DNA from: Rhodobiaceae bacterium UBA4490
Lineage (GTDB): Bacteria > Pseudomonadota > Alphaproteobacteria > Parvibaculales > Parvibaculaceae
Direction of reading: 5' to 3'
NCBI GenBank assembly: GCA_002389665.1
Contig: DGNO01000001.1
Span: forward strand, 273,564-337,563
Length of the DNA: 64,000 nt
Shown: positions 31,234-56,520 of the stretch, piece after piece
Position numbering within the stretch: position 1 is the first letter of the stretch
How the letters are laid out: the number at the start of each line of letters is the position of its first letter
The notes under the pieces: model-generated
Database searches by the model: none
Told to the model about the DNA's origin: nothing
What the model saw: the letters and a program-made list of their open reading frames with translations, nothing else
Program-made: the position numbers and the translations under genes

Positions 31234-31262
31234 TTGACAGAAAAGAACAAATCATGAACATT
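31234..31262 (+). promoter_or_regulatory. LexA-overlapped promoter of the small membrane protein gene
   Basis: A perfect -35 TTGACA (31234-31239), then a 17-base spacer to AACATT (31257-31262), a weak -10. The LexA box at 31245-31259 covers the spacer and the -10, which is where a repressor would block RNA polymerase. Confidence 0.55.
31245..31259. promoter_or_regulatory. LexA (SOS) box, GAAC-N7-GAAC
   Basis: GAAC AAATCAT GAAC is an exact match, on the minus strand, to the alphaproteobacterial SOS operator GTTC-N7-GTTC. The same element sits before lexA in this window (56506-56520). It is 67 bases upstream of a 46-codon gene and about 380 bases upstream of dnaE. Confidence 0.8.
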
Positions 31263-31325
31263 TGTTTTCCAACACAGGCCATGAGCCCGGCACATCTGCC
31301 GAACCGCTTAAAAAGGGGAGCTGCC

Positions 31326-31466
31326 ATGTACACGGATCTGCACCGCGAAGAACGCCGCCAGAACTGGAAAGCCTGGGCACAGGACACCGCCGCCCTGATC
31401 TCGATTGCCGGGCTCGGCTGGATGCTGCTCACCTGGTCCTCGGTCGCGACCACGCTTTTGAGCTAA
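31326..31466 (+). CDS. Small single-span membrane protein under SOS control (SidA-like candidate)
   Basis: A 46-residue protein with a charged N-terminus (MYTDLHREERRQNWKAW) and one hydrophobic segment (about residues 20-45, DTAALISIAGLGWMLLTW and onward), so a single-pass inner-membrane protein. The ATG at 31326 has AAGGGGAG 5 bases before it; the in-frame ATG at 31254 lies inside the operator and is rejected. The promoter carries an exact LexA box. In Caulobacter the LexA-controlled SidA (29 residues, one span) blocks division at the septum; this gene has the same plan, but I see no sequence identity I can claim. A division-inhibitor role is inference. Confidence 0.75.
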   Translation: MYTDLHREERRQNWKAWAQDTAALISIAGLGWMLLTWSSVATTLLS

Positions 31467-31640: not shown

Positions 31641-34600
31641 ATGTCCGATGCGCAAACCGACACCCTTTCCGCTGAAGATGCCGTAAAGCGCATCGACGCC
31701 AATCCCTGCCGGTTTATCCATCTGCGTCTGCATTCGGCCTATTCGCTCCTGGAAGGGGCGATCCGCATCAAGGAACTGGTCGGGCTTTGCGAGACCCAGG
31801 CCATGCCCGCCGTCGCGGTGACGGATACGGGCAACCTCTTCGGCGCGCTGGAATTTTCCGAGACCATGGCGGGCGCGGGCCTGCAGCCGATTATCGGCAC
31901 CACCTTCGCAGTGGATATGGATGAAGGCCCCGCCGACCCGCTGGCCGGGCGCGCGGCGAAATGGGAACCCTCCGGGCGCCTCGCCCTGCTGGTGAAGGAC
32001 GAGCAGGGCTATATGAACCTGATGAAACTCTCCTCCCGGGCGTTTCTGGAGACGGATCAGACCCTCGAGCCCCATGTCACCCTGGCCGATCTTGAAGAAC
32101 TATCCGAAGGTCTGATCTGCCTGACGGGCGGCCCCGCCGGGCCTGTCAACAAGCTGATGGCCGGCGGTCAGGTCGCGGCCGGTGAGGCGATGCTGCAGCG
32201 GCTCTCCGGCATCTATGGCGACCGGCTTTATGTGGAATTGCAGCGCCACGGGCTTGAGGAAGAAGTCACCGCCGAAGGCCCGCTGGTAGAGGCGGCCTAT
32301 AAGTTCGATCTGCCGCTGGTTGCCACCAATGAGCCCTATTTCAAGAAGCGTGAGGAATTCGAGGCTCATGACGCGCTGATCTGTATCGCCGAGGGCTCTT
32401 ATGTGTCCGAGGACGACCGGCGCCGCCTGACGCCCGAACATTATTTCAAGAGCCAGGCGGAAATGGCCGAGCTTTTTACCGATCTGCCCGAGGCGCTGGA
32501 AAATACGCTGGAGATCGCGCGCCGCTGCGCCTACCGCCCGCTTACCCGCAGCCCCATTCTGCCGCGCTTCGATACCGGGGAGGGCCTCTCGGAAGCCGAT
32601 GAGTTGCGCCGCCAGGCCGAAGAGGGGCTGAAAAAACGCCTGGCCGAAATCGAAACCGCCGCGCCGGAAGAAGAATATTGGGAGCGGCTCAATTTCGAGC
32701 TCGATGTGATCATCCGGATGGATTTTCCGGGCTACTTCCTGATCGTGTCGGACTTCATCAAATGGGCGAAAGACCAGGATATTCCGGTGGGGCCGGGCCG
32801 TGGCTCGGGCGCCGGTTCGCTCGTTGCCTATGCGCTGCTCATCACCGACCTCGACCCCTTGCGCTTCGGCCTCCTCTTCGAACGTTTCCTCAACCCGGAA
32901 CGTGTGTCGATGCCGGACTTCGACGTCGACTTCTGTCAGGACCGGCGCGATGAAGTGATCCGCTATGTGCAGGATAAATACGGCTATGACCGCGTGGCGC
33001 AGATCATCACTTTCGGGAAGCTGCAGGCCCGCGCGGTGCTGCGCGATGTGGGCCGCGTCCTGCAGATGCCCTATGGCCAGGTGGACCGGCTCTGCAAGCT
33101 CGTGCCGAACAACCCAGCCAATCCCGTCACGCTGAACGAGGCGATCGAGGGCGAGCCGAAACTGCGCGAGGAACGGGACCGCGAGGAGGTTGTCGCCAAA
33201 CTCCTGGAGACGGGGCAGAAGCTCGAAGGGCTTTACCGCCACGCCTCCACCCACGCGGCGGGCGTGGTGATCGGCGACCGCAAACTCGATGAGCTGGTGC
33301 CGCTTTACCGCGATCCGCGCTCGGATATGCCGGTGACCCAGTTCAACATGAAATGGGTGGAACCGGCCGGTCTCGTCAAATTCGACTTTCTGGGCCTGAA
33401 AACCCTGACCGTGCTGACGACCGCCGTCAATTTCATCAAGCAGCGCGGCATCGATATCGATCTCTCCAACCTGCCGCTCGATGACGAGCCGACCTACAAG
33501 CTGCTGGAGAAAGGCGACACGGTCGGCGTCTTCCAGTTGGAAAGCACCGGCATGCGCGACACGCTGCGCAAAATGAAGGCCGACTGTCTGGAAGACATCA
33601 TCGCGCTTGTGGCGCTCTACCGCCCCGGCCCGATGGACAACATCCCCAAATATATCGCCTGTAAGCTCGGCCATGAAAAGCCGGACTACCTGCACGATTG
33701 GCTGAAACCCATCCTGACCGAGACGAACGGTGTCATCATCTATCAGGAACAGGTGATGCAGATCGCGCAGGTCCTGTCCGGATATTCGCTGGGTGAAGCC
33801 GACCTGCTGCGCCGCGCCATGGGTAAGAAGATCCAGGCGGAAATGGACAAGCAGAAAGTCCGTTTCGTGGAAGGGGCCGTCGAAAAGGGCGTGGAGCGCA
33901 AACAGGCCGATTACATTTTCGAGCTCGTGAACAAGTTCGCCGGCTACGGCTTCAACAAGTCCCACGCCGCGGCCTATGCCTTCATCGCCTATCAAACGGC
34001 TTATCTGAAAGCGAACTATCCCGTCGAGTTTCTGGCCGCCTCCATGAACCTCGATATCAACAACACCGACAAGCTCAACATCTTCAAGCAGGACGCGGCC
34101 CGTATGGGCATCACTGTCCGCTCGCCCAGCGTCAATGAAAGCGAGGCCAGCTTCTCGGTGAAGAACGGCGAGATCGTCTATGCATTGGGCGCGATCAAGA
34201 ATGTCGGCGCCCAGGCGATGGAAGAGCTGGTGGCCCTGCGCAAGGAAGGCGACTCCTTCAAGGACATTTACGACTTTGCCCGGCGCATCAACCCGCGCGG
34301 GGTCAATAAACGTACGCTGGAAAACCTGATCCGGGCCGGCGCGCTCGATTGCCTCAACCCGCACCGCGCTCAGCTTCTAGCCTCCGTGGACAAGCTGATG
34401 GGGCTGGCCGCGCAAGCCGCCGAGGAGCGCAGCAGCCAGCAGAACTCGCTTTTCGGCGATGGCGGGGAGGCGCTCGACAATCCGTCTCTCAATCACGCCG
34501 AGCCCTGGACGCCCATCGAAAAACTGAACGAGGAATTTGGCGCGCTCGGCTTTTTCTTGTCCGGCCATCCGCTCGACGATTATCAGGTGGCGATGAAGCG

Positions 34601-35117
34601 GGCAGGGGTCGTGACCTATCAGCAGCTCGCTGCGCGCGGCAACAAGGCCGAGCGGGTGGCGGGCATCGTCTCGGCGCGGCGCGACCGGCGCTCCCAGCGC
34701 GGCAATGCCTATTCCTTCGTGACACTTTCCGATGCGACGGGGCAGTTCGACATTCTGGTCTTCTCCGAAGCGCTCTCTCAGGCTGGCGATCTTCTGGAGC
34801 CGGGCCAGGCCGTGGTAATGAGCGTCGAGATCGACCGGCAGGACGATGATCTGCGCCTGCGCGCCCAGTCCGTGCGGCCCATCGAGGAAGTGGCGGCGAA
34901 CACGGCAGCGGGCCTGAAAATATTCCTGGATCAGCCGGAGCCGCTCTCCGCCGTCCGCTCCCGCCTGTCGGAGAAGGGGCGGGGCGCCGTCTCGCTGGTG
35001 CTGATGACGGAAGGCCGGGAAGTGGAAATGGAGCTGAAAGAACGCTTCCATATTACCCCGGCCATTCGCGGCGCCATCCGCTCCATTCCCGGCGTGGTCG
35101 AGGTGCAGGACGTTTAG
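31641..35117 (+). CDS. dnaE: DNA polymerase III subunit alpha
   Basis: The 1158-residue replicative polymerase of the C family. An N-terminal PHP domain starts at LRLHSAYSLLEG (about residue 28). The polymerase core has GPGRGSGAGSLVAYAL, the catalytic Asp pair in MPDFDVDFCQDRR (about 423-435) and KFDFLGLKTL with the third Asp (about 580). Fingers and helix-hairpin-helix regions follow, including ALYRPGPMDNIPKYI and NKFAGYGFNKSHAAAYA. The C-terminal OB fold has VAGIVSARRDRRSQRGNAY. The length and order are those of the main DnaE1, not of the error-prone DnaE2. Confidence 0.97.
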   Translation: MSDAQTDTLSAEDAVKRIDANPCRFIHLRLHSAYSLLEGAIRIKELVGLCETQAMPAVAVTDTGNLFGALEFSETMAGAGLQPIIGTTFAVDMDEGPADPLAGRAAKWEPSGRLALLVKDEQGYMNLMKLSSRAFLETDQTLEPHVTLADLEELSEGLICLTGGPAGPVNKLMAGGQVAAGEAMLQRLSGIYGDRLYVELQRHGLEEEVTAEGPLVEAAYKFDLPLVATNEPYFKKREEFEAHDALICIAEGSYVSEDDRRRLTPEHYFKSQAEMAELFTDLPEALENTLEIARRCAYRPLTRSPILPRFDTGEGLSEADELRRQAEEGLKKRLAEIETAAPEEEYWERLNFELDVIIRMDFPGYFLIVSDFIKWAKDQDIPVGPGRGSGAGSLVAYALLITDLDPLRFGLLFERFLNPERVSMPDFDVDFCQDRRDEVIRYVQDKYGYDRVAQIITFGKLQARAVLRDVGRVLQMPYGQVDRLCKLVPNNPANPVTLNEAIEGEPKLREERDREEVVAKLLETGQKLEGLYRHASTHAAGVVIGDRKLDELVPLYRDPRSDMPVTQFNMKWVEPAGLVKFDFLGLKTLTVLTTAVNFIKQRGIDIDLSNLPLDDEPTYKLLEKGDTVGVFQLESTGMRDTLRKMKADCLEDIIALVALYRPGPMDNIPKYIACKLGHEKPDYLHDWLKPILTETNGVIIYQEQVMQIAQVLSGYSLGEADLLRRAMGKKIQAEMDKQKVRFVEGAVEKGVERKQADYIFELVNKFAGYGFNKSHAAAYAFIAYQTAYLKANYPVEFLAASMNLDINNTDKLNIFKQDAARMGITVRSPSVNESEASFSVKNGEIVYALGAIKNVGAQAMEELVALRKEGDSFKDIYDFARRINPRGVNKRTLENLIRAGALDCLNPHRAQLLASVDKLMGLAAQAAEERSSQQNSLFGDGGEALDNPSLNHAEPWTPIEKLNEEFGALGFFLSGHPLDDYQVAMKRAGVVTYQQLAARGNKAERVAGIVSARRDRRSQRGNAYSFVTLSDATGQFDILVFSEALSQAGDLLEPGQAVVMSVEIDRQDDDLRLRAQSVRPIEEVAANTAAGLKIFLDQPEPLSAVRSRLSEKGRGAVSLVLMTEGREVEMELKERFHITPAIRGAIRSIPGVVEVQDV

Positions 35118-55762: not shown

Positions 55763-56461
55763 TTAGTAGCGGCGCATCAGGCCGACAAGGCGGCCCTGAA
55801 CCTTCACCCGGTCCGGGCCGAAGATCCGCGTTTCATAGGCAGGGTTCGCCGCTTCCAGCGCAATGGAATCGCCTTTCCGGCGCAGGCGCTTCAGCGTTGC
55901 TTCATACCCATCGACCAGGGCCACCACGATCTCCCCGTTATTGGCCGTATCGCAGCGCTGAATAATCACCGTGTCGCCGTCCAGAATGCCGGCCTCGATC
56001 ATGGAATCGCCTTTGACTTCCAGCGCGTAATGCTCGCCGTTGGAGAGCATGGCAAGCGGTACGGAAACCTGATGGCTTTCCTCCTGCAGCGCTTCGATCG
56101 GCGTACCGGCGGCAATCCGGCCCATGACGGAGACGGGCAGGGCGTCGTTCTCATTGGCAGGGGCGGGGGCCAGGCTCGCAGGGGCGCCGCCGCCCTCAAT
56201 CACCTCCGGCTCGAAGCCGCGTCCGCGCGCCAAGCTCGGGGCCGCCGCGTCGGGCAGTTTGAGCACTTCCAGAGCCCGGGCCCGGTGGGCGAGGCGGCGG
56301 ATAAAGCCGCGCTCTTCCAGCGCCGTGATGAGCCGGTGAATGCCCGATTTCGAGCGCAAATTCAGCGCTTCCTTCATTTCGTCGAAGGAAGGCGCAACGC
56401 CCGTTTCTTTCAGGCGTTCGTTGATGAACATAAGAAGTTCATGCTGCTTGCGTGTGAGCAT
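55763..56461 (-). CDS. lexA: LexA repressor
   Basis: A 232-residue SOS repressor. ATG 56461 gives the standard [17 protein letters not shown] start. The winged-helix DNA-binding domain (1-67) contains the recognition helix in [19 protein letters not shown] long linker leads to the self-cleavage site Ala118-Gly119 ([10 protein letters not shown]) and the catalytic dyad Ser153 (GDSMIEAGI) and Lys191 (ATLKRL). All residues needed for RecA-stimulated autocleavage are present. Its own promoter carries LexA boxes. It is downstream of moeA and convergent with comEC, a usual alphaproteobacterial arrangement. Confidence 0.97.
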
Positions 56462-56481
56462 GGGTGCGGCCCCAATATCTA

Positions 56482-56496
56482 GAACAAACGATAAAC
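56482..56496. promoter_or_regulatory. Second, imperfect LexA box upstream of lexA
   Basis: GAAC AAACGAT AAAC matches the direct-repeat operator except for one base in the second half-site. It lies between the promoter and the lexA start, 24 bases after (downstream of) the perfect box. Confidence 0.5.
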
Positions 56497-56505
56497 ATTT
56501 CACTT

Positions 56506-56520
56506 GTTCTAGTTTGGTTC
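56506..56520. promoter_or_regulatory. LexA (SOS) box of lexA, GTTC-N7-GTTC
   Basis: GTTC TAGTTTG GTTC is an exact match to the alphaproteobacterial SOS operator. It overlaps the -10 and spacer of the lexA promoter (56506-56534), consistent with autorepression. Confidence 0.88.

What the first reader, a model, noticed from the sequence alone, without database searches (positions are those of the whole stretch)
31234..31466. SOS-controlled 46-residue membrane protein, a SidA-type division-inhibitor candidate
An exact LexA box (GAAC-N7-GAAC) overlaps the promoter of a tiny single-span protein with a good ribosome binding site. Caulobacter LexA controls SidA, a one-span peptide that stops division. 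The plan is the same but I see no clear homology, and the gene is small enough to be missed by annotation. It lies between lolD and dnaE, where no division gene is expected.
Basis: partly seen in the sequence, partly recalled or inferred. Interest (0 to 1): 0.75.

Follow-up and report, generated by a model that had tools for sequence, protein, structure and literature searches.

The report
Divergent SidA, an SOS division brake
A tiny, easily overlooked gene beside the replication-polymerase gene is a distant relative of SidA, the membrane peptide that stops Caulobacter cells dividing while damaged DNA is repaired, and the same switch appears to sit at the same place in many other alphaproteobacteria.

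Summary
In detail: an exact LexA box (31245-31259) precedes a 46-codon single-span ORF (31326-31466) with a good ribosome site. The motif alone proves nothing (not enriched genome-wide). Conservation does: 35 of 40 genomes of the window's family carry box plus ORF, five are unresolved; pooled pN/pS is 0.15. In 43 of 44 loci from a SidA-pattern scan, including Caulobacter segnis, dnaE follows SidA. A profile of such SidAs alone ranks the window ORF first of 1516 frames (E 0.012); 0 of 500 shuffles reach the peptide's score. Its best NCBIfam family is SidA, far below cut-off (13 vs 35 bits). Box plus peptide precedes dnaE in 14 further families, six of them sequence-supported besides Caulobacteraceae. 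lexA, with its own box, is in this window. Best explanation: a divergent SidA, induced by LexA cleavage, whose helix holds FtsW/FtsI/FtsN inactive. Family membership is well supported; division inhibition is inferred. A new member of a known kind; the broader point is that SidA is not peculiar to Caulobacteraceae.

The parts
31234..31239 (+). TTGACA, candidate -35; no convincing -10 was found
   Evidence: sequence; the sigma-70 scan reports no promoter here; TTGA lies within 14 nt upstream of a box in 42 of the 66 boxed sidA-like genes examined
31245..31259 (+). LexA box GAACAAATCATGAAC
   Evidence: exact match; identical in G001; an exact box lies within 150 bp upstream of the start in 66 of 72 distinct sidA-like genes
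31315..31320 (+). ribosome binding site GGGGAG
   Evidence: sequence; the same letters in G001
31326..31466 (+). sidA-like gene, 46 aa, one predicted membrane helix
30445..31167 (+). lolD, upstream neighbour
   Evidence: best match LolD, below its cut-off
31641..35117 (+). dnaE, downstream neighbour
55769..56461 (-). lexA (stretch scanned; the stop was not located)
   Evidence: TIGR00498, 176.5 bits, above cut-off; start read
56506..56520 (-). LexA box of lexA, GAACCAAACTAGAAC, 44 bp between box and ATG

Best explanation
The ORF is a divergent SidA. Undamaged cell: LexA sits on the box and keeps the gene off. DNA damage: RecA on single-stranded DNA triggers LexA self-cleavage, the promoter opens, and a 46-residue peptide inserts in the inner membrane, by the positive-inside rule with its charged N-terminus in the cytoplasm. 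Its helix carries a conserved stripe (D20, L24, W32, with S26 beside it) that would bind FtsW in the membrane and hold the FtsW/FtsI/FtsN septal wall-synthesis complex inactive, so the cell elongates until repair is done and LexA returns. Shown here by sequence: box, ORF, purifying selection in the family, homology and shared locus with SidA, and the presence of lexA with its own box, recA and ftsW. Inferred from Caulobacter: induction, orientation, FtsW binding, division block.
For: Shared locus: the one class genome whose SidA exceeds the NCBIfam cut-off (L039) has it between lolD and dnaE with a LexA box; of 44 loci from a SidA-pattern scan of named genomes, 43 have dnaE next and 38 an exact box, Caulobacter segnis and C. 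ginsengisoli among them. Shared sequence: a profile of 21 of those SidAs ranks the window ORF first of 1516 frames, and 0 of 500 shuffles of the peptide's last 31 residues reach its score; hhalign probability 93.6, 38% identity over 21 columns; [DE]-x3-L-x-S-x5-W core. Best NCBIfam match is SidA NF033228. Selection: pN/pS 0.15. Regulon: exact boxes before lexA, between divergent ssb and uvrA, and before a ComM-type gene, an SRAP gene and an ImuA-like gene. Topology: one helix, residues 3-45, mean pLDDT 81. Mechanism in Caulobacter: PMC4211646 (passages).
Against: The NCBIfam match is 13.1 bits against a cut-off of 35. Searched through the window's whole genome, the SidA profile does not return this ORF at E 5 or better; it finds the right ORF in 4 of the 25 family genomes searched (G019, where it is the best hit of the whole search, G015, G005, G011). 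Scores of 14 family members against 500 shuffles each vary: one has 111 and another 14 shuffles at or above it. No experiment shows induction or a division block in this organism.
Confidence: 0.8

Rival explanations
1. A SidA homologue that has drifted to another membrane target: a LexA-controlled single-span peptide that acts on another envelope or divisome protein (FtsN, as DidA does, or a transporter) or depolarises the membrane.
For: Only a short core is shared with SidA; the N-terminal extension of about 13 residues is absent from the 29-31-residue SidAs. DidA in Caulobacter shows that such peptides can bind FtsN instead (PMC4211646, passages).
Against: The positions shared with SidA are the conserved ones on both sides, and locus and control are unchanged.
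Confidence: 0.12
2. The box serves dnaE: the ORF is a leader peptide of an SOS-induced dnaE transcript and has no function of its own as a protein.
For: dnaE follows on the same strand in 43 of 44 loci; in Caulobacter segnis (L187) it begins about 30 bp after the sidA stop (sequence printed).
Against: The amino-acid sequence, not only an open frame, is conserved (pN/pS 0.15). In G011 box and ORF stand about 1.6 kb away from dnaE, and 174 bp separate ORF and dnaE in the window. In Caulobacter the extra deletion of sidA removes the filamentation of a lexA mutant (PMC12700426, passages).
Confidence: 0.05
3. Chance ORF next to a chance motif.
For: The exact motif is not enriched genome-wide (60 against 91 for the control).
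Against: Box, ORF and D-x-A-[AG]-L-x-[SA] motif together in 35 of 36 family loci examined, one cut by a contig end; box and short ORF in 14 other families; purifying selection.
Confidence: 0.01

Closest known systems
SidA of Caulobacter crescentus (CCNA_02004; NCBIfam NF033228)
   Same: LexA control, one-span peptide, place upstream of dnaE (seen here in C. segnis and relatives), [DE]-x3-L-x-S-x5-W core
   Different: 46 residues instead of 29, with a charged N-terminal extension and a second conserved tryptophan (W37); scores below the NCBIfam cut-off
DidA of Caulobacter crescentus
   Same: small membrane division inhibitor acting on FtsW/I/N after damage (PMC4211646, passages)
   Different: SOS-independent, controlled by DriD; sequence not compared here
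YneA (Bacillus), SosA (Staphylococcus), ChiZ (Mycobacterium)
   Same: DNA-damage-induced small membrane inhibitors of a late division step; modelled on FtsW TM7 in PMC13396833 (passages)
   Different: YneA and ChiZ carry a LysM domain, and the same models put SidA on the opposite side of TM7; sequences and loci not compared here
SulA of Escherichia coli
   Same: SOS-induced division inhibitor
   Different: acts on FtsZ (PMC13396833, passages); not a one-span membrane peptide (recalled)

Membership tests
SidA | LexA box at the promoter | tested here: met
SidA | sidA locus: upstream of dnaE, with lolD further upstream in some | tested here: met
   of 44 loci dnaE was recognised next in 43 and lolD within 2.2 kb upstream in 14
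SidA | Sequence similarity to known-type SidA beyond composition | tested here: met
   (rank 1 of 1516; 0 of 500 shuffles); the whole-genome search misses the window ORF
SidA | NCBIfam NF033228 score above the curated cut-off | tested here: not met
   13.1 bits against 35. This is the cut-off of an equivalog model made for 29-residue SidA; it bars the name by NCBI's rule and is why I call this a divergent relative, not an NF033228 member
SidA | Single membrane-spanning helix, very small protein | tested here: met
   hydropathy, one predicted helix 3-45; 46 aa against 29
SidA | Induction by DNA damage through LexA | not testable with these tools
   box only; needs RNA or reporter data
SidA | Binds FtsW and blocks division | not testable with these tools
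   ftsW is present

The most novel reading that the evidence does not exclude
SidA is an old, widely inherited part of the alphaproteobacterial SOS response, fixed upstream of dnaE, that has gone unannotated outside Caulobacteraceae because the peptides are 26-51 residues long and diverge fast; one large branch of the class lost it and must brake division in another way.
Probability: 0.65. Interest if true: 0.6.

Novelty: new member of a known kind. Interest (0 to 1): 0.52.

Why it matters
If the reading is right, the SOS division checkpoint studied in Caulobacter is general to much of a bacterial class, and the natural variation in these peptides (which positions never change) maps how a membrane helix silences FtsW. 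It also explains a set of unannotated SOS genes in a predictable place.

Tried and rejected
Motif count as evidence: rejected, the exact box is no more common than its reversed control in the genome. A longer 70-residue frame from the ATG at 31254 inside the box: rejected as the likely start because the extension does not appear among the frames of G001. Pfam: no family for three peptides tried. The protein database gave 2 proteins for the single peptide and 34 for the 41-row alignment; among the latter are SidA-type peptides of 29-31 residues, none named SidA by its source. A SidA profile over whole genomes: mixed result, told above. The short ORFs upstream of dnaE in families f116, f123 and f52 are not separable from shuffles and those of f41 only marginally: there the case rests on position and box. 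Papers: the listings of searches and the passages I read in six papers (PMC4211646, PMC12700426, PMC13384398, PMC9578287, PMC13396833, PMC10769358) show no report of SidA outside Caulobacter; the library holds open papers only, most listed papers were not opened, and the original SidA paper (Modell 2011) was not seen, so this absence is weak. The name of the window's organism was not found.

Full report
What is there. The window holds lolD, a 473-bp gap and dnaE, all on the plus strand; the frame before lolD looks like lolC by eye. In the gap lie TTGACA (31234-31239), the LexA box GAACAAATCATGAAC (31245-31259), GGGGAG (31315-31320) and a 46-codon ORF (31326-31466). The best family of the upstream gene is LolD, though below that model's cut-off; DnaE is above its cut-off. 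A second exact box at 31350-31364 lies inside the coding sequence and is probably a by-product of the codons. No good -10 element was found.

Is it more than chance. By count alone, no: 4 exact boxes in the window against 1.50 expected (5 of 100 shuffles reach 4) and 60 in the genome against 91 for the reversed motif. By conservation, yes. In the window's family 40 genomes were reached (G000-G039). In 24 the locus with the start of dnaE was read, and all 24 have an exact box 60-480 bp before dnaE. I then asked for dnaE in 14 others or doubtful ones; 10 had a match, and 8 of these show box plus ORF. G011 has box and ORF about 1.6 kb further upstream of dnaE, and G032 and G033 have lolD, ORF and box on a stretch without the start of dnaE. 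A last reading found, behind an exact box, an ORF with D-x-A-[AG]-L-x-[SA] in 35 of 36 such loci; the 36th (G029) is cut by a contig end. That makes 35 of 40 genomes; in the other five (G006, G026, G029, G037, G039) the place could not be read. Most of the first 24 loci were found through the peptide itself, so 24 of 24 is not an unbiased rate.

Coding. Pooled over 8 independent pairs pN/pS is 0.15, with 24, 11 and 72 changes at codon positions 1, 2 and 3; the two shifted and three antisense frames give 1.64, 2.78, 1.36, 0.31 and 3.46, with 36, 11, 2, 9 and 31 stops. Fifteen pairs were computed; seven overlapping or divergent ones were left out of the pool, among them L023/L029 with dN/dS 0.86. 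The window's own pair, in the pool, has 0.94 on 4 substitutions. The 14 family sequences aligned share W17, D20, A22, L24, S26, W37 and A41 without exception and W32 nearly so (window numbering).

Homology to SidA. The best NCBIfam family of the window peptide is SidA, at 13.1 bits against a cut-off of 35. In 385 genomes of the class the SidA model exceeds its cut-off in one (G391); the control genome of Caulobacter vibrioides also exceeds it. The G391 locus, L039, reads lolD, LexA box, SidA, dnaE. A scan of named genomes with two SidA peptide patterns matched 111 stretches and confirmed 44 loci: by title 31 Caulobacteraceae (Caulobacter and Brevundimonas included), 6 Caulobacterales, 5 Alphaproteobacteria and 2 Proteobacteria. 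dnaE begins within about 60-500 bp of the SidA start in 43, an exact box lies between 250 bp before and 100 bp after that start in 38, and lolD was recognised within 2.2 kb upstream in 14. Caulobacter segnis has MALRIARESLALASVAGFVWMMCSMAFLVA there. Aligned with the window family, the shared core is [DE]-x3-L-x-S-x5-W. Profile against profile: probability 93.6, E 2.2e-7, 38% identity over 21 columns. A profile of 21 SidAs from those loci ranks the window ORF first of 1516 stop-to-stop frames (E 0.012), and the peptide itself scores above all 500 shuffles of its last 31 residues; across 14 family members the number of 500 shuffles at or above is 0, 0, 1, 4, 111, 1, 0, 2, 0, 0, 14, 0, 7, 1, and the summed score is 161 against a maximum of 36.9. 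The whole-genome search is the weaker result: of 25 family genomes it returns the right ORF in four, one being its best hit of all (E 4.1e-5), and does not return the window's.

How far the family reaches. dnaE was found in 354 of 385 class genomes, not all of them listed with a position. I read the upstream stretch in 151 genomes of 71 families: the 24 of the window family, two loci found through SidA, and others taken from the listed, best-scoring dnaE matches, several listed rows of families already covered being skipped. An exact box lies 60-480 bp upstream in 50 of 151; outside the window family in 26 of 127 genomes, from 14 families including f63, which is Caulobacteraceae (L040 there has the same peptide as Brevundimonas sp. 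Root608). Controls: reversed motif 0 of 151, shuffled regions mean 1.26 (maximum 4 of 151), inside dnaE 0 of 51. In all 26 a short ORF with a hydrophobic stretch follows the box (no control was run for that part). The other 57 families read show no exact box there. With a profile from A4 plus the window family (35 sequences), 25 peptides of 13 other families were scored against 1000 shuffles each: no shuffle reaches the score for the tested members of f4 (3), f121 (2), f171 (1), f57 (1) and f18 (1) and for one of two of f91 (the other 12 of 1000); f126, f82 and f5 are intermediate (1 to 98 of 1000); f41 is marginal (20 to 84); f116, f123 and f52 are not separable (74 to 403). A 41-row profile over 385 class genomes has matches at E 0.05 or better in 60; most of the strongest lie at dnaE, among them G120, G234 and G330, whose peptides were not in the profile though relatives were, while many of the weak ones lie in long frames elsewhere and look like chance. 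On a DnaE tree of 37 rows the presence of the gene needs 4 changes against 11.5 for shuffled labels; one 'absent' row (L060) has a contig end there and is really unknown. I read this as early presence with loss in one large branch, though the root is not fixed.

Control elements. Of 72 distinct sidA-like genes compared, 66 have an exact box within 150 bp upstream of the start; one of the six without (L011) has it farther off, one (L104) has it the other way round.

The regulon. lexA itself lies in this window (56461 downwards, minus strand) with box GAACCAAACTAGAAC 44 bp before its start. Of the 60 exact sites in the genome I looked at 26 more, mostly chosen for A+T-rich middles: boxes lie between divergent ssb and uvrA and before a gene of the ComM type (name recalled from its Mg-chelatase domains), an SRAP gene, a gene with an ImuA match below cut-off, vsr beside a cytosine methylase, and a ribonucleotide reductase; many others fall inside frames and are probably chance. 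A box lies about 185 bp upstream of the recA match (positions). ftsW is present above cut-off. The SOS circuit that the explanation needs is therefore there.

Mechanism. [quoted passage not shown] a lexA mutant filaments because of sidA (PMC12700426, passages). Modelling in PMC13396833 places SidA on FtsW TM7, at low confidence (passages). The window peptide is predicted as one helix from residue 3 to 45, mean pLDDT 81; a lone helix says little more. D20, L24 and W32 lie four and eight residues apart and so on one side of it, with S26 near: my inference is that this is the FtsW-facing side.

Verdict. It is a new member of a known kind; what adds interest is the breadth of the family at one fixed locus.

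Noticed in passing
window 55769-56520, minus strand: lexA with its own exact LexA box lies in the same window, about 25 kb from the sidA-like gene.
   Followed up: yes
upstream of sidA-like genes, e.g. L018, L032, L196, L273: Two exact boxes in tandem: among the 72 genes, spacings of 26 bp in 8 cases, 18 bp in 4 and 25 bp in 1; perhaps a double operator for tighter repression.
   Followed up: partly
L022 (G011): Box and sidA-like ORF are separated from dnaE by about 1.6 kb; an open frame next to it reads like a dihydrofolate-reductase-type gene (by eye).
   Followed up: partly
L220, box at 1501: An exact box about 50 bp before an AFG1-type ATPase (PF03969), the family of the division ATPase ZapE (recalled); a possible second link of SOS to division.
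   Followed up: no
L233, box at 1501: Exact box before a 180-residue protein with a DUF7742 match just above its cut-off; unknown SOS candidate.
   Followed up: no
G267:C77:7006-7089, G350:C63:45651-45728: In two f126 genomes without a box at dnaE, the sidA-like profile has weak hits elsewhere (E 0.0065 and 0.019): the gene may have moved.
   Followed up: no
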